Part shown: piece after piece, positions 1-6,333 of the stretch
How positions within the stretch are numbered: the stretch's first letter is position 1
Layout of the letters: each line of letters starts with the position of its first letter
Source of the DNA: Parafannyhessea umbonata
GTDB lineage: Bacteria; Actinomycetota; Coriobacteriia; Coriobacteriales; Atopobiaceae
NCBI RefSeq assembly: GCF_900105025.1
Contig: NZ_LT629759.1
Location: 2,170,001-2,234,000, forward strand
Direction: 5' to 3'
Length of the DNA: 64,000 nt
Translations under genes and position numbers: made by a program
Notes under the pieces: generated by a model
Databases searched by the model: none
What the model was told of the DNA's origin: nothing
The model's input: only the letters and a program-made list of their open reading frames with translations

Positions 1-1
1 T

Positions 2-1486
2 CAAGACAAAAATACAGGCAAGTATTACTACGGTGAGGGCAATGGCGATAGCCTGAATCAGAACTACTACTACGCGAAGCTGCAAGCTCAAGCGATAGTA
101 AAGAAGAAGGGCTGGGAGTTCTACTCTGTCGCGGCCTTTGGCAACGTCAACAACATGCAGAAGCTCGTTACGGATTCCGGGGAGCAGACGAAAGACCATT
201 TCTTCAAGGCCAGCGACAGCAGCTCTCTTAACGCCGCGTTCGAAAGCATTGTCAAGAGCATTACGACGACTGTTTCGTATACGGATGTCTCAATTCACGA
301 TTCCCTCTCCGATTCTGTGAAATATGTTCTTCCAAGCGGCGCAGAAGAGCCAACCTTTACCTATAAGAAGAATGAAAAGCCTTGGACTCCTGAGACCTCT
401 GATAAGTTAGCTAAGTTAGTAAACGGAGCTGTCGTCTGGAGCGTTGGCGACCTGGATCCAGACACAACTTATTCTGTCACGTTCAAGGTCCGGCTTACGC
501 AAGACGCTTACGACGCCGCCGCACCAAAGGATGGCGAAGAGGTGGTGTCCGATGTAAAGACGAACTCGGGTGACGCCTCAAAGGATTTTGTTGAATACAA
601 GATAAAAACTGACGTAGACGGCACGACAACGACGAGCGAGTCTCAACAATCGAAATACGATTCACCGACCGTAGCTGTTCCCAAATCCATCCTGCACGTC
701 TCGAAGACCTGGGAGACGAATGGTTGGGGCAACGTGAACCCGCCATCCAAACTGCAGGTTAAGGTCAAGCAGGATGGCGAGGACTACACGACCGTGACGC
801 TCGATGCGAGTAATAACTGGTCGACAGACGTTTTCGTTGCCGCAGGTCCCAAGGGCCATAAGTACACCGTGGAAGAAGTGAATGCGCCGGTGGATTGGGA
901 TGCCAAGCTACCCGATGGCGTGACCCTGAAGGGGCTGACTTCGCTGACACGCGACCAGGCAATAACTAACACCATCAAGACCGCGAAGCTGACCATCACG
1001 AAGTCGGTTACCGGCAACTTTGGCGACACCTCGAAGGACTTCAGCTTCACGCTCGCGGACGCTTTTGGAAACGCAATCACCAACGTCAAGGCGATTGACG
1101 GCACTTCGGACGGCGTGAGCCTTGGGAACAATGGCGACTTCACGCTGAAGAATGACGAGAAGCTTGTGGTCGAGCTTCCCTATGGGGCTTCGTACAAGGT
1201 GGTCGAGCACGACCCGAAGGGTACGAACGACACCGTTGACTACATCACCACGATCGATGTGGGTGAAAGTGGCGCAATCACTGACAATAACACGCGCACT
1301 GCCAGCTCGCCCGAAGGCGGCATCACGCAAGACACGACCATCAAGTACACCAACTCTCGCCACGTTACGCCGGACGTGGGCGTCGACCTTGGCAGCGGTG
1401 CTTCCTATGCAGCCGTTTGCGGCGGGGTTGGTATTGCCGGCGTGATTTGGATGGTCCTCAAGCGGCGGAACAGACTGGGAATCTAG
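2..1486 (+). CDS. Pilus tip adhesin with vWA domain (5' truncated)
   Basis: The open frame runs in from the window edge, so the N-terminus is missing. The first residues (YSVAAFGNVNNMQKLV, then AAFESIVKSI) look like the end of a von Willebrand A domain. A Cna-B-like domain follows (about 690-960, starting HVSKTWETNGWGNVNPPSKL), then a pilin-type domain (about 985-1360, LTITKSVTGNFGDTSKDFSF) that resembles part of the backbone pilin downstream. The C-terminus is a sorting signal: TPDVGVDLG, a hydrophobic segment and a KRR tail. The motif is not LPXTG; it resembles the VPTGV type used by class B pilus sortases. By analogy this is the surface tip protein of the pilus. It is the first visible gene of the operon. 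Ligand unknown. Confidence 0.8.
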   Translation, partial: QDKNTGKYYYGEGNGDSLNQNYYYAKLQAQAIVKKKGWEFYSVAAFGNVNNMQKLVTDSGEQTKDHFFKASDSSSLNAAFESIVKSITTTVSYTDVSIHDSLSDSVKYVLPSGAEEPTFTYKKNEKPWTPETSDKLAKLVNGAVVWSVGDLDPDTTYSVTFKVRLTQDAYDAAAPKDGEEVVSDVKTNSGDASKDFVEYKIKTDVDGTTTTSESQQSKYDSPTVAVPKSILHVSKTWETNGWGNVNPPSKLQVKVKQDGEDYTTVTLDASNNWSTDVFVAAGPKGHKYTVEEVNAPVDWDAKLPDGVTLKGLTSLTRDQAITNTIKTAKLTITKSVTGNFGDTSKDFSFTLADAFGNAITNVKAIDGTSDGVSLGNNGDFTLKNDEKLVVELPYGASYKVVEHDPKGTNDTVDYITTIDVGESGAITDNNTRTASSPEGGITQDTTIKYTNSRHVTPDVGVDLGSGASYAAVCGGVGIAGVIWMVLKRRNRLGI

Positions 1487-1497
1487 TGGTGCTTGGC

Positions 1498-1878
1498 ATG
1501 GGGAAACACTCGAGGTCCGATTCGCCCTACGTGCGGAAGGCCAGCGTGAATCCGGTTGTGCCCGTCGCGGGAGGTACCCAAAGACCCAAGGCGGGTCGCA
1601 ACCGCACCAAGGCTCCCACGGCAGCCGACTACGGTATGCCGGTACAGACCGAGAGGGCTCCCCAGCAGGAGCCCCTCAGCGAGGAGCAGGAAGAACTACT
1701 CGCATGGCTCAAGGCCATGAAGTTCAAGCGGGTGAGGTTTGGCGGCGTAAGCGAGGAGGACGTCTGGAAGAAGATATCTGAGCTCAACCGGCGATACGAT
1801 GCCTGCCTCAGGGCGGAGCGGGCACGTTATGACGCGCTGCTCGAGTCAAGGGGAATCAAGGGGTGGCCGCATGCCTAG
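1498..1878 (+). CDS. Small pilus-operon protein of unknown function
   Basis: A 126-residue charged protein with no signal peptide or membrane segment. The first 60 residues are basic and Pro-rich and probably disordered. The C-terminal half (LSEEQEELLAWLKAMKFKRV to the end) should be helical, possibly a coiled coil. It lies 11 bp after the adhesin and overlaps the SipA-like gene by 8 bp, so it is probably translationally coupled to it. An in-frame GTG at 1489 sits 8 bp after GGGA and is an alternative start. I do not recognise a characterised family; position suggests a cytoplasmic accessory role in pilus production. Confidence 0.65.
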   Translation: MGKHSRSDSPYVRKASVNPVVPVAGGTQRPKAGRNRTKAPTAADYGMPVQTERAPQQEPLSEEQEELLAWLKAMKFKRVRFGGVSEEDVWKKISELNRRYDACLRAERARYDALLESRGIKGWPHA

Positions 1879-2419
1879 GGTCACCGAGAAGGGCGGACTT
1901 GCGGAAGGAGTGATTAAGGCCCGCTGGGCGAAGGCCAGAGATCGCGAAGGTTGGCTTTCGCTCATAGGGAAGGTGACTGTTCTTCTCGCCGCGCTGTGGC
2001 TGCTCTTCTCGTTTGTGTTCTGCTTGCACAGGGTGCGTGGCAACGACATGTATCCGGCGATGCAGGACGGGGACCTGGTTCTGACGTGGAGGCTTCAGGG
2101 TTCGTACAACCAGAACGATGTGGTGGTGTACAGATCCCGGGGCAAGGAACTGGTCGGGAGGGTCCTGGCGAAGGAGGGAGACGTGGTCGACCTCACGGAC
2201 GATGGTCAGGTGACCGTGAACGGCACTCCGGAGTCCAACGAGATCTACCAGACGAAGGCAGAGAAGGCCGTCAAGTTTCCCTACTTGGTTCCGAAGGGAA
2301 AGATATTCGTCCTGGGAGACTTTAGGACCCAGGCTACAGATAGCAGGAAGCTCGGCGCGATTCCCACGAGCGACGTCGAGGGAGTGACGATCGGGTTGCT
2401 CAGGAGGCGTAAGTTCTGA
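1871..2419 (+). CDS. sipA: SipA-like signal peptidase homologue without Ser/Lys dyad
   Basis: A 182-residue protein with one N-terminal membrane segment (about 31-52) and the S26 signal peptidase fold outside. The box that normally holds the catalytic Ser reads RGNDMYPAMQDGD, giving Asp59 at that position. The box with the catalytic Lys (normally KRV.G.PGD) reads GRVLAKEGD, giving Gly96. The last box, LGDFRTQATDSR, is intact. Streptococcus pyogenes SipA, needed for pilus polymerisation in the FCT locus, carries the same Asp/Gly replacements. I infer a non-proteolytic assembly factor acting with the class B sortase. The ATG at 1871 overlaps the previous gene's end and follows AAGGGG; the longer upstream ATG lacks a good RBS. 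Confidence 0.85.
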   Translation: MPRVTEKGGLAEGVIKARWAKARDREGWLSLIGKVTVLLAALWLLFSFVFCLHRVRGNDMYPAMQDGDLVLTWRLQGSYNQNDVVVYRSRGKELVGRVLAKEGDVVDLTDDGQVTVNGTPESNEIYQTKAEKAVKFPYLVPKGKIFVLGDFRTQATDSRKLGAIPTSDVEGVTIGLLRRRKF

Positions 2420-2490
2420 GCCTCAGCAAGTTTGGTGAACGGCGATTTGCATCGCTTTCATATTTGGGAGACCGTTGGAAGGAGAACCAC

Positions 2491-3504
2491 ATGAACGCAA
2501 AGCTTACGAAGGGACTGGCTGCCGCAGCAATCTCTGCTGCCATGATGCTGGGTGCCGCTGCTCCGGCGCTGGCGGAGGATGCGCAAAACGCAACCGTGAA
2601 CGTGACCTATACGCAGGAGGGGGAGGGCACGCGTCCGAGTGAGACGCTCACCTACACCTCTGAGAACAAGAGCGTTGAGGGATCCTCCAAGTACAGCGGA
2701 ACCAACTTCCCCAAGCTCACAGTAACGGGGACGACGGTCGATAGCACGAAGAACGGTACCGTCACGATTAACCTTCCGACATATGATACCGTCGGCATTT
2801 ACAAGTATGAGCTTACGCCGAGCTATACGGTCAGCAACGATGCGGGTGTTTCATACGACAACCAGCACCTGTACGTGACCGTTACCGTGGAGCAGACTAA
2901 TAATGGTCTTGAGAGGACGGTGGCCGTCCACCGTGGTTCTGCGGATGGCGGTAAGACCGGCGATATTGCGCTTAAGTACTCCACTGGCAAGCTGACTGTC
3001 ACGAAGAAGATCACTGGTAACCTTGGTGACGTGCAGAAGAAGTTCGACTTCAAGGTTGAGCTTACTGGTCCCGACGGCAGGGCAATCAACGGTACGTACC
3101 ACTATACGGTACCCGGAAGTGCCGAGGCAAAGACCATTACTTTCACGAATGGCAAGGCGACCGTTACTGGGGCGTCCCTGGCGAATGATGAGTCGATCGT
3201 GATTACCGATCTTCCCGCGGGCGTTTCCTACGACGTGTCCGAGCTCAATGGCAAGGATGCTGTTGCAGAGGACGGAACTGGCAAAGCCGCTGATGGCTAT
3301 ACGCTGAAGAGCGTTGAGAAGCCTGACACTGAGACCATCGCAGCTAACGACAACGATACCGAGACGTATACGAACGACAAGAGCGACGATAACGTCGACA
3401 TGGGTGTCCTTCTGAACAATGCTCCCTACATCGCAATCATCGGCGGTGCGGCCGTTGTCGCGATTTACGTCGTGAACAAGCGTCGTCACAGCGATATGGA
3501 CTAG
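2491..3504 (+). CDS. FctA-like major (backbone) pilin
   Basis: A 337-residue precursor. The signal peptide runs to about residue 29 (AAPALA, then EDAQ). The first domain has the Spy0128/FctA pattern (GVSYDNQHLYVTVTVE), a family that forms internal Lys-Asn isopeptide bonds. The second (LTVTKKITGNLGDVQKKFDF) matches a domain in the tip adhesin. The sorting signal is NVDMGVLLNNAPYI, a hydrophobic stretch and NKRRHSDMD. It resembles the VPTGV signal of streptococcal backbone pilins with Pro-Thr replaced by Asp-Met. ATG 2491 follows GGAAGGAG. The gene lies between sipA and the sortase, as in FCT loci, so it is the likely shaft subunit. Which lysine is used for polymerisation cannot be told by eye. 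Confidence 0.85.
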   Translation: MNAKLTKGLAAAAISAAMMLGAAAPALAEDAQNATVNVTYTQEGEGTRPSETLTYTSENKSVEGSSKYSGTNFPKLTVTGTTVDSTKNGTVTINLPTYDTVGIYKYELTPSYTVSNDAGVSYDNQHLYVTVTVEQTNNGLERTVAVHRGSADGGKTGDIALKYSTGKLTVTKKITGNLGDVQKKFDFKVELTGPDGRAINGTYHYTVPGSAEAKTITFTNGKATVTGASLANDESIVITDLPAGVSYDVSELNGKDAVAEDGTGKAADGYTLKSVEKPDTETIAANDNDTETYTNDKSDDNVDMGVLLNNAPYIAIIGGAAVVAIYVVNKRRHSDMD

Positions 3505-3545
3505 TTGTCGCCACTGACGGCTAGACGCGTTTCGCAATAGGCTCA

Positions 3546-3578
3546 TAGGCTGCGGGCGGGTTGCCCGCCCGCAGCCTA
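3546..3578 (+). promoter_or_regulatory. Perfect 15-bp intra-operon hairpin
   Basis: Arms 3546-3560 and 3564-3578 are exactly complementary, GC-rich and separated by TTG. No T-run follows, so it is not a standard intrinsic terminator. It sits 41 bp after the backbone pilin stop and 24 bp before the sortase ATG. I infer an mRNA processing or stabilising element, or an attenuator that keeps sortase expression below pilin expression. Confidence 0.65.
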
Positions 3579-3602
3579 CTACCAGTAGAGGAGGTGCGGT
3601 AC

Positions 3603-4373
3603 ATGGGCGCATCAAAGCCACTTAGGGTTTGCAATAGGGTCTTTAACGTTGTGCTTGCCGCACTCCTGGTGGGAGCAACGCTTTTTGCGGGGTATTCCCT
3701 GTGGGACAACCAGCAGGTGTACGCAGAGGCGAAGGGCGTGAGGGACGACCTGCTGAACCTGAGGCCCAAGGAGGGCAAGGACAACAGGAAGGCCTTTGAG
3801 AAGCTGAGAAAGATCAACCCCGATGTGGTTGCATGGATAACCATGGATGGGACCAAGATCGACTACCCGATAGTCCAGGGCGAGGACGACGAGGAGTACG
3901 TCAACAAGGACGTGTACGGTGACTTTGCCCTGTCCGGATCGATCTTCCTGGATACGCAGTGCAACCCCTCGTTTACGGACGCGTACTCCCTTGTTTACGG
4001 GCACCACATGGAAAACCACCTCATGTTTGGCGACCTGGACCTCTATCACAACAAGAAGTTCTTCAAGAAGAGCACGACCGGCGTATTGATGACGCCGGAC
4101 AGCACGTACGGCTTGGAGGTGCTTGCCGTGATGACGGTGAACTCCTCTGACAGCACGATCTTCTCGCCCACATCGTGGGCCAAGGATTGCTCTGGCGTCT
4201 TGAGCTACGCGACGCAGAAGGCGGAGCACATCCACAGCGACGTGGCCGAGAAGATCGGGGCCGACACCTCGCAGGAGCGGATTGTGGCACTTGCCACCTG
4301 CTCCTCTGAGGGAACCGAGGCCCGGACGGTACTGCTGGCAAGGATCGTCCCCTACACGGGTGACGGCAAGTAG
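3603..4373 (+). CDS. srtB: Class B pilus sortase
   Basis: A 256-residue transpeptidase with an N-terminal membrane anchor (about 14-34) and an external catalytic domain. Catalytic residues are visible: His134 in VYGHHM, Cys233 in ALATCSSEG and Arg241 in EARTVLLAR. The N-terminal part (VVAWITMDGTKIDYPIVQ, then YVNKDVYG) is typical of class B. This subgroup polymerises FctA-type pilins with VPTGV-like signals, which fits the unusual signals of the two preceding surface proteins. ATG 3603 follows GAGGAGGTG. No other sortase gene is in the window; the wall-anchoring housekeeping enzyme must be elsewhere. Confidence 0.93.
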   Translation: MGASKPLRVCNRVFNVVLAALLVGATLFAGYSLWDNQQVYAEAKGVRDDLLNLRPKEGKDNRKAFEKLRKINPDVVAWITMDGTKIDYPIVQGEDDEEYVNKDVYGDFALSGSIFLDTQCNPSFTDAYSLVYGHHMENHLMFGDLDLYHNKKFFKKSTTGVLMTPDSTYGLEVLAVMTVNSSDSTIFSPTSWAKDCSGVLSYATQKAEHIHSDVAEKIGADTSQERIVALATCSSEGTEARTVLLARIVPYTGDGK

Positions 4374-4393
4374 ATGGCGAGTTAGGAAGAGAA

Positions 4394-5449
4394 ATGAAGA
4401 TCAAACACAGGCTCATAGCGGCTGCGCTCACGCCAGCGCTGCTCCTCCTGGCGGCCCTGTTCCCCTCGAACGCTCTGGCGATCGAGGGGGACGCGACTAC
4501 CGTAAAAGTACCCGTGACCGTGACCACGTCTGGCCAGGGCATCCCGGGCGAGACGTATACGGTGGAGATCGAGGCGGAGACCTACGGCGCCCCTATACCC
4601 AGCGCGTCCAAGATTGACGTAAAGGGCGAGGAGCTGAAGGCAGACACCTACAAGGGCGATCCTGCCGAGTTTTACCTGGACTTCTCCAAGGCTCGCGTGG
4701 GCATCTACAAGTATCGCATCTCTCAGGTTGCCCCGAAGAACACCACCGGCCGCGGTGAGTATGACGGCACTGTCTACTACATGACCGTGACGTACGAGCA
4801 TCCCAACGGAGACATGGGCAAGACCCTGGTGACTGCTGCGGTGCACGAGGGCACGCCCGAAGGCACGAAGGTTGCTGTGTGCAACTTTACGAACACGTAC
4901 GCGAACCTTCCCGCCGGTGAGATTGACCCGCCCGTCACCAAGAAGATTGCCGGTGACAAGCCTGCCAAGAAGTCGACGTTTGACTTTGTGCTGGAGTCCA
5001 TCGACGGCGCCCCGCTGCCTGAGGGAGCAAAGGACGGCAAGCTCACGACCAGCATCGAGGGCGAGGGCACCATCGAGTTTGGCAAGATCGACTACACCAA
5101 GGCCGGCACGTACGAGTACAGGTGCTATGAGATTGACAAGGGCGAGGATGGGTACACCTACGACAATACCGTCTATACCATGCGCGTAGCCGTGACCGAG
5201 GGCACCAAGAACTTCAAGGTCGAGCGTGCCATCGTGGACAAGAACGGCAAGGAGCACGACTCCCTGACGTTCGTGAACACCTACAAGGCGCCCGCGAAGC
5301 CCGCTACGGTTAAGAAGGGTGGCTCAGGCGTCGTGAAGACGGGAGACACCAACAACGTAGGCGCCGTTGTTGCGCTGGGCGTGATTGGTGCTGTGGCTGT
5401 TGCTGGCGCCGTGGTCATGAGGCGTGACAACAAGAAGGAAGAGAAGTAA
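4394..5449 (+). CDS. FctA/FctB-like minor pilin, probable wall-anchoring base
   Basis: A 351-residue precursor with a signal peptide ending near FPSNALA (residue 30). It has two FctA-type domains, recognised by YDGTVYYMTVTYEHPNGD and YDNTVYTMRVAVTEG. The sorting signal differs from the other two: VKTGDTNNV, a hydrophobic segment, then MRRDNKKEEK. That is closer to LPXTG-type signals used by housekeeping sortases. In streptococcal FCT loci the last pilin (FctB) is the base that SrtA attaches to the wall, and I infer the same role. It starts 20 bp after the sortase stop, behind AGGAAGAG, and is the last gene of the operon. Confidence 0.8.
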   Translation: MKIKHRLIAAALTPALLLLAALFPSNALAIEGDATTVKVPVTVTTSGQGIPGETYTVEIEAETYGAPIPSASKIDVKGEELKADTYKGDPAEFYLDFSKARVGIYKYRISQVAPKNTTGRGEYDGTVYYMTVTYEHPNGDMGKTLVTAAVHEGTPEGTKVAVCNFTNTYANLPAGEIDPPVTKKIAGDKPAKKSTFDFVLESIDGAPLPEGAKDGKLTTSIEGEGTIEFGKIDYTKAGTYEYRCYEIDKGEDGYTYDNTVYTMRVAVTEGTKNFKVERAIVDKNGKEHDSLTFVNTYKAPAKPATVKKGGSGVVKTGDTNNVGAVVALGVIGAVAVAGAVVMRRDNKKEEK

Positions 5450-5681: not shown

Positions 5682-5939
5682 ACCAGCGGTGCCCGTCGTT
5701 TCTTAACTGGGGTGCGGGCAACGCCAGGTGTTGCGAATCGAAAAGCACGGTTGCCGCCGGGTTTTTCTCATTTCCTAACGCTATCCGTTGCGATGTCTAT
5801 GCTCCCTTACCATCTCCCTCGCCTCCCTGGCTACGTCGAGGAACGTTCGGGCGATGCTCGCGACGATCGCGAGGGCTTTCAGGACGCCATTCAACAGATT
5901 TAGCCGTGGGTAACAACGTCCACACTGGGCACCGCTGGT
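5682..5939. mobile_element. Small inverted-repeat element, copy 1 (degenerate)
   Basis: A 258-bp segment bounded by ACCAGCGGTGCCC (5682-5694) and its exact reverse complement (5927-5939). Its interior is closely similar to copy 2 at 6106-6385, including the segment TATCCGTTG-GATGTCTATGC and a G/C-rich hairpin. On the minus strand it keeps the C-terminal part of the copy-2 small ORF (5781-5891, ending AREAREMVREHRHRNG), but there is no ATG or RBS. I see no transposase; this could be a MITE-like element or a duplicated regulatory/toxin module. Confidence 0.55.
5781..5891 (-). pseudogene. Degenerate copy of the 42-residue small ORF
   Basis: Reads NGVLKALAIVASIARTFLDV then AREAREMVREHRHRNG and stop. 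It parallels the intact small ORF at 6205-6333 but has lost the ATG and the AAGGAGGT leader. Confidence 0.5.
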
Positions 5940-6164
5940 TTGTAAGCCCGGTTGCCGCCGGGCACTTTCTTGACTCTTCTAAACCCCTGCTGCGAGAGAT
6001 GCCGTTCGCGCTGTGCTGAGCCGACCGGTCAGTCCGCCACGTGCCGAATTGCTCCGCAAAAACCGTATGGACAGCAAGGGGCATTGCTGGGTAGAATAAA
6101 GGTACACCAGCGGTGCCCGTCCTTTCTTAACTGGTACGCGGGCAACGCCAGGTGGTTCGAATCG

Positions 6165-6190
6165 AAAAGCCCGGTAGCCGCCGGGCTTTT
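6165..6190. terminator. Hairpin terminator inside element copy 2
   Basis: Perfect stem AAAAGCCCGG (6165-6174) / CCGGGCTTTT (6181-6190) with a 6-nt loop, and runs of T on both strands. It lies just downstream of the minus-strand small ORF, whose transcript it would end. Confidence 0.7.
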
Positions 6191-6204
6191 CTCATCTCCT
6201 AACG

Positions 6205-6333
6205 CTATCCGTTGTGATGTCTATGCTCCCTTACCATCTCCCTCACCTCCCTGACTACGTCGAGGGACGTTCGGGCGATGCTCGCAACGAGCGCGAGGGC
6301 TTTCAGGACTTTAAGGACAAGGTTCATGTCCAT
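6205..6333 (-). CDS. 42-residue amphipathic small protein
   Basis: ATG at 6333 follows AAGGAGGTAAGCCT, the best Shine-Dalgarno sequence in this region. The N-terminal half (MDMNLVLKVLKALALVASIA) is hydrophobic with spaced lysines; the C-terminal half is charged and ends REHRHHNG. Size, layout and the terminator just after the stop resemble small membrane-active or type I toxin peptides, but no family is recognised. An antisense RNA might start near the opposite end of the element. Translation rests on the RBS and on partial conservation in copy 1. Confidence 0.55.
   Translation of the reverse strand: MDMNLVLKVLKALALVASIARTSLDVVREVREMVREHRHHNG

What the first reader, a model, noticed from the sequence alone, without database searches (positions are those of the whole stretch)
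1..5449. Streptococcal FCT-type pilus assembly locus in an actinobacterium
The gene order adhesin, small protein, SipA-like protein, FctA-like pilin, class B sortase, second pilin matches streptococcal FCT islands. Actinobacterial pili described so far mainly use class C sortases and LPXTG signals. All three subunits here have non-LPXTG signals: TPDVGVDLG, NVDMGVLL and VKTGD.
Basis: partly seen in the sequence, partly recalled or inferred. Interest (0 to 1): 0.7.

Follow-up and report, generated by a model that had tools for sequence, protein, structure and literature searches.

The report
Class B sortase pilus, altered sorting signals
A gut-type actinobacterium (class Coriobacteriia) carries a complete gene set for a covalently linked surface hair of the kind known from streptococci; the kind is common in gut bacteria, but here the 'cut here' tags on its building blocks have drifted from Pro-Thr-Gly to Asp-(Thr/Val/Met)-Gly together with the enzyme that reads them.

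Summary
Window 1-5449 encodes a vWA tip protein (its start lies about 875 bases upstream of the window), a small basic protein, a SipA-like signal peptidase homologue without its catalytic residues, a Spy0128/T-antigen-type major pilin, a class B sortase with an intact Cys-His-Arg set, and a base pilin with two FctA domains. The class B and SipA assignments are well supported.

The locus is not exotic. The same block occurs in about 40 of 400 Coriobacteriia genomes and in Lachnospiraceae, Oscillospiraceae, Erysipelotrichaceae, Enterococcus and others. The nearest sortases outside the family are clostridial, not streptococcal.

The new part is the sorting signals. In most such pilins the residue before the Thr-Gly cleavage site is Pro. 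The window's sortase belongs to a clade spanning Clostridia and the window's family in which it is usually Asp/Glu (14 of 21 in this and a neighbouring clade, 0 of 80 elsewhere). The linked SipA proteins form the matching clade. Within it the cleavage-site Thr is sometimes Val or, in this genome's major pilin, Met.

Polymerisation is unproven, and the Met could be a strain mutation or a sequencing error. Verdict: a new variant of the known class B sortase/SipA pilus.

The parts
1..1486 (+). tip adhesin/pilin, C-terminal 494 of 786 aa (whole gene G000:C1:2169126-2171486); DUF7604, Cna_B, DUF7601 in the window, vWA domain mostly upstream
   Evidence: C-terminal sorting signal and membrane anchor
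1367..1393 (+). tip sorting signal T-P-D-V-G-V-D-L-G (Asp at P2, Val at P1)
   Evidence: the same PDVG in congener L038, PDVA and PDVG in L040
1498..1878 (+). small basic, probably cytoplasmic protein, no Pfam match; conserved between tip and sipA in several family-f1 loci
   Evidence: start codon inferred
1871..2419 (+). SipA-like signal peptidase homologue; Asp (2045-2047) and Gly (2156-2158) at the catalytic Ser and Lys positions
2491..3504 (+). major (backbone) pilin; D1 FctA/Spy0128-like, D2 DUF7601 with candidate isopeptide Lys/Glu/Asn; candidate acceptor Lys155 (codon 2953-2955)
3391..3414 (+). backbone sorting signal N-V-D-M-G-V-L-L (Asp at P2, Met at P1)
3547..3577 (+). GC-rich inverted repeat (RNA hairpin, 14-15 pairs, 3-base loop) between backbone pilin and sortase, no T run after it
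   Evidence: kept in L038 (with a two-sided pair change) and L039
3603..4373 (+). class B sortase (256 aa), catalytic His134, Cys233, Arg241
4394..5449 (+). base pilin with two FctA domains; isopeptide Lys/Glu/Asn pattern in the second
5330..5347 (+). base sorting signal V-V-K-T-G-D

Best explanation
An operon for a covalently linked, class B sortase/SipA-dependent pilus. Proposed working: the three pilins are exported by N-terminal signal peptides and held in the membrane by their C-terminal anchors. The sortase, assisted by the non-catalytic SipA-like protein, cuts the tip signal at PDV|G and the backbone signal at VDM|G. It joins the freed carboxyl to a lysine (probably Lys155) of the next backbone subunit, so a shaft of backbone subunits grows under the vWA tip. 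The base pilin, with a different signal (VVKTGD), ends growth and is fixed to the wall, probably by the second class-B-like sortase of the genome. The sortase belongs to a clade that has shifted from Pro to acidic residues at P2 and tolerates Val/Met/Asn at P1. Shown: gene content, homology, active-site residues, gene order, clade, signal statistics. Inferred: cleavage position, acceptor lysine, polymer formation, role of SipA, which sortase anchors the base, adhesion.
For: Class B sortase with catalytic residues. SipA homologue with the same Asp/Gly replacement as S. pyogenes SipA (PMC4049620, where SipA deletion abolishes polymerisation). Backbone similar to GAS T antigens in sequence and in predicted fold. 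vWA tip, FctA base. Same block in other loci: a SipA match beside the sortase in 33 of 40 further coriobacterial stretches and 66 of 80 genome-contig loci, with many of the rest cut by contig ends. Both substrates of the one sortase, tip and backbone, carry Asp at P2 while the base does not follow. Acidic P2 tracks the sortase tree: 14 of 21 in this and the neighbouring clade, 0 of 80 outside; 5 changes against 13.3 in shuffles, 0 of 500 as low. SipA of the same loci forms one clade. Experimental precedents: S. pyogenes FCT-2/3/4 (PMC7900414) and C. perfringens VR-10B (PMC8088525).
Against: No experiment shows a pilus in any coriobacterium with this block. Met at P1 is unique among 95 parsed backbone signals (Thr in 90) and differs from the congeners' Thr, so it may harm cleavage. 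Of five held-out clade sortases, the loci had at P2 Asp, Asp (with a second pilin that has Asn), Glu, Ala and Pro, so the acidic preference is a tendency. Two Asp cases lie in the neighbouring clade, joined only with support 83. The predicted backbone model is of moderate confidence (pLDDT 68.8).
Confidence: 0.8

Rival explanations
1. The locus is a decayed or strain-crippled pilus: Thr to Met at the cleavage site of the major pilin (one base, ACG to ATG) stops efficient polymerisation in this strain, or is a sequencing error.
For: Met is seen once among 95 backbone signals in the main set and the two congeners have Thr. One genome per species was available, so strain variation and error cannot be told apart.
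Against: All six genes are open and intact. Val at P1 is conserved in the tip of two genera. Val occurs in clade backbones L149 and L173 and Met in another clade's backbone, L205. So non-Thr P1 recurs.
Confidence: 0.2
2. The sortase only anchors the proteins one by one to the wall; no polymer is made.
For: Some class B sortases (S. aureus, B. anthracis, C. difficile) act on single proteins (PMC11987632); no pilus has been seen here.
Against: Major pilin of GAS backbone type with a near-invariant lysine at the place of the GAS acceptor; linked SipA; block order as in proven pili.
Confidence: 0.1
3. The block was recently acquired from streptococci.
For: Gene order and best solved-structure matches are streptococcal, though solved structures are biased to pathogens.
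Against: The sortase tree places the window with family f1 and clostridial sortases; 65-90% identity to family members against 38% to Spy0129.
Confidence: 0.02

Closest known systems
Streptococcus pyogenes FCT-2/FCT-3/FCT-4 pilus (Cpa, SipA/LepA, FctA, class B SrtC1/SrtC2, FctB)
   Same: Gene order, class B sortase, SipA with Asp/Gly instead of Ser/Lys, two-domain backbone of the same fold, FctB-like base, lysine before the end of D1
   Different: vWA tip instead of the Cpa architecture; Asp-Met/Val-Gly signals instead of Pro-Thr-Gly; D1 isopeptide residues apparently lost in the window's backbone; extra small gene; LytTR-type gene upstream; the sortase is not in the streptococcal lineage
Streptococcus oralis/pneumoniae pilus islet 2 (PitA, PitB)
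   Same: vWA tip (PitA, 7w6b) and related pilin domains
   Different: Backbone of the window is closer to GAS T antigens; sorting signals
Clostridium perfringens VR-10B pilus (CnaA, FimA, FimB, signal peptidase, class B sortase)
   Same: Same gene kit and class B sortase, pilus shown by microscopy (PMC8088525), so the kind is not limited to streptococci
   Different: Collagen-binding CnaA tip; sequences not compared here
Actinobacterial class C (SpaA-type) pili
   Same: Sortase-linked pilins; the genome has two class C sortase loci of its own
   Different: Class B sortase, SipA present, no LPXTG, no YPKN pilin motif in the backbone

Membership tests
class B sortase/SipA pilus (FCT-2/3/4, VR-10B kind) | pilus sortase of class B with Cys-His-Arg | tested here: met
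   TIGR03064 above cut-off, class B PDB hits, invariant His134/Cys233/Arg241
class B sortase/SipA pilus (FCT-2/3/4, VR-10B kind) | linked signal-peptidase homologue (SipA/LepA) | tested here: met
   4n31 match 4e-25; Asp/Gly at catalytic sites
class B sortase/SipA pilus (FCT-2/3/4, VR-10B kind) | Spy0128/T-antigen-type backbone pilin | tested here: met
   sequence E 3e-23, predicted fold best matches T18.1, T3.2, Spy0128
class B sortase/SipA pilus (FCT-2/3/4, VR-10B kind) | tip and base pilins in the order tip, SipA, backbone, sortase, base | tested here: met
   same order in related loci
class B sortase/SipA pilus (FCT-2/3/4, VR-10B kind) | covalent polymer on the cell | not testable with these tools
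   needs immunoblot, electron microscopy or mass spectrometry
streptococcal FCT region in the strict sense | (V)P-T-G type sorting signals of tip and backbone | tested here: not met
   TPDVG and NVDMG
streptococcal FCT region in the strict sense | sortase in the streptococcal lineage | tested here: not met
   groups with Clostridia and family f1; few streptococcal rows in the tree
streptococcal FCT region in the strict sense | RofA/Nra/MsmR regulators in the region (feature from general knowledge) | tested here: not met
   upstream neighbours are a LytTR gene and glycogen-metabolism-like genes; downstream a gene that reads like mfd
class C sortase (SpaA-type) pilus | class C sortase | tested here: not met
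   no NF033745 hit for the window sortase, while L004 and L005 hit it
class C sortase (SpaA-type) pilus | LPXTG signals and YPKN pilin motif | tested here: not met
   sequence of P0001 and P0004

The most novel reading that the evidence does not exclude
A distinct clade of class B pilus sortases, shared by gut Clostridia and the window's family of Coriobacteriia and co-inherited with its own SipA branch, reads an acidic residue before the cleavage site and no longer needs Thr there, so that it builds pili by cutting after Val or Met.
Probability: 0.35. Interest if true: 0.6.

Novelty: new variant of a known kind. Interest (0 to 1): 0.45.

Why it matters
It would extend class B sortase pili, described mainly from streptococci and one Clostridium, to a large set of gut bacteria including Coriobacteriia. 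The natural series Pro-Thr-Gly, Asp-Thr-Gly, Asp-Val-Gly, Asp-Met-Gly, with matching sortase and SipA branches, offers a direct way to ask how a pilus sortase reads its substrate and whether SipA takes part, which is an open question (PMC7900414). Sortases that accept other cleavage sites are also useful for protein ligation.

Tried and rejected
Streptococcal origin: rejected by the sortase trees. Class C sortase: rejected. 'Every member of the clade has Asp at P2', suggested by the first set, failed on held-out genomes (Asp, Asp/Asn, Glu, Ala, Pro) and was weakened to a preference. 'Met at P1 is unique': outside the main set L205 has Pro-Pro-Met-Gly. Sortase residue behind the acidic preference: Ser182 (Tyr in most others) lies in the beta6/beta7 region by my reading against S. 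aureus SrtB, but L044/L048 have Asp signals with Tyr, so no claim is made. Intrinsic terminator between pilin and sortase: the hairpin has no T run. Rfam: no match. No paper on class B pili in Coriobacteriia was found in the open library; subscription papers are not covered.

Full report
1. Observation. The window lies at 2170001-2234000 of a single 2.35 Mb contig. No species name was available. Six genes run in one direction: tip (cut by the window edge; 786 aa in full), small protein, SipA-like protein, backbone pilin, sortase, base pilin. The small gene and sipA overlap by 8 bases; backbone, sortase and base genes have good ribosome sites.

2. What the parts are. The sortase passes the curated class B cut-off and its closest solved relatives are class B, including the S. 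pyogenes pilus sortase Spy0129. The SipA-like protein matches S. pyogenes SipA and carries Asp and Gly where signal peptidases have Ser and Lys; all 35 coriobacterial SipA-like proteins compared lack the catalytic Lys. The backbone matches GAS T antigens by sequence and by predicted fold (model confidence moderate). Its second domain keeps a candidate Lys/Glu/Asn isopeptide set; the first domain appears to have lost it, relative to clostridial relatives (reading of the alignment). A near-invariant lysine (Lys155) sits 6-7 residues before the end of the first domain, within one position of GAS Lys161 in the alignment (Lys161 from PMC7900414, its place in the chain by my reading). The base has two FctA domains. 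The tip has a vWA domain plus DUF7604, Cna_B and DUF7601 domains.

3. Spread. In 400 Coriobacteriia genomes, 40 have a sortase hit at E 2e-36 or better (my count). 40 stretches fetched around such hits show the same block; SipA is found in 33 of them, several of the rest being cut by contig ends. A genome-wide scan with a mixed alignment gave 80 loci in Lachnospiraceae, Oscillospiraceae, Erysipelotrichaceae, Enterococcus, Anaerococcus, Streptococcus, Propionibacteriaceae and others, 66 with SipA beside the sortase. One genome (G097) has two such blocks in tandem.

4. Sorting signals. Among 95 backbone signals parsed by position (Gly seven residues before a conserved Pro), the residue before the cleavage-site residue is Pro in 61 and Asp in 10; the cleavage-site residue is Thr in 90 and Met only in the window. 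The Asp cases are all the parsed members of the window's clade plus L044 and L048. L039 and L149, read by hand, have Asp as well, L149 with Val at P1. To test this, the clade's sortase profile was searched in 391 clostridial genomes, 140 of the window's family and 394 of another order. Five new strong matches had Asp, Asp (with a second pilin that has Asn), Glu, Ala and Pro; weaker matches had Pro, one with Met at P1. On a tree of 117 sortases the window sits in a 15-row clade (SH-aLRT 97) with acidic P2 in 12; with the neighbouring 6-row clade 14 of 21, against 0 of 80 elsewhere; 5 changes against 13.3 in shuffles. Some state labels in that call were entered by hand; for L199, with two pilins, the Asn one next to the sortase was used. 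SipA proteins of the same loci form one clade (support 94). Tip signals of the clade carry Asp too, in 10 of 11 read, while base signals do not follow. This pattern is what a shift in sortase (and perhaps SipA) preference would leave; related loci share ancestry, so it is few independent events.

5. Other sortases. The genome has four: two class C (with LPLTG and VPKTG neighbours), this one, and a second class-B-like one between purE- and purM-like genes, just under the class B cut-off. With no class A or E enzyme found by the family search, the last is the likely housekeeping sortase and the likely anchor of the base; C. difficile, with SrtB as its single sortase, is a precedent (PMC4155245, title only). 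This is inference.

6. Hairpin. A 31-base GC-rich inverted repeat lies between backbone and sortase genes (3547-3577; z -2.8 for the spacer). Both congeners keep it, one with a C-G to T-A change on both sides. It has no T run; a role in holding down sortase and base expression relative to the backbone is a guess.

7. Known or new. The kind is known: S. pyogenes FCT-2/3/4 (PMC7900414), C. perfringens VR-10B (PMC8088525). It is a member of that kind by every defining feature tested; its signals depart from Pro-Thr-Gly, which is not constant in the kind. It is not a streptococcal FCT region. New here, as far as the open literature searched shows, are its breadth in Coriobacteriia and gut Clostridia, and the sortase clade with acidic P2 and loosened P1.

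Noticed in passing
G000:C1:2032912-2033670 (L007:1399-2409, - strand): Second class-B-like sortase encoded between purE- and purM-like genes; related matches in most Coriobacteriia genomes searched; probably the housekeeping sortase of a genome without class A or E enzymes.
   Followed up: partly
L004:985-2121 and L005:1207-2283: Two class C sortases in the same genome beside pilin-like proteins with LPLTG and VPKTG signals, so the genome may carry three pilus loci.
   Followed up: partly
window 3547-3577: 31-base GC-rich inverted repeat between backbone pilin and sortase genes, kept in two congeners with one compensatory pair change and without a T run.
   Followed up: partly
window 1498-1878: Small basic protein family with a conserved GVxExxVW core and a C-terminal RY/HYxxLL end, between tip and sipA in family-f1 loci; no Pfam match.
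   Followed up: partly
L003:9974-10825 (- strand, upstream of the window): LytTR-type regulator gene divergent from the pilus operon; conservation beside other loci not checked.
   Followed up: no
window 5682-5885 and 6106-6309: 204-base direct repeat, 92% identical, in the spacer between the pilus operon and the next gene.
   Followed up: no
L042:6815-7960, L043:8073-9218, L077:8123-9259: Coriobacterial backbone pilins with V-P-T-D instead of V-P-T-G: Gly after the cleavage site replaced by Asp.
   Followed up: no
L054, L058, L061, L073, L076 sortases: Several class B pilus sortases of Coriobacteriia have a C-terminal hydrophobic segment, a trait usual for class C sortases.
   Followed up: no
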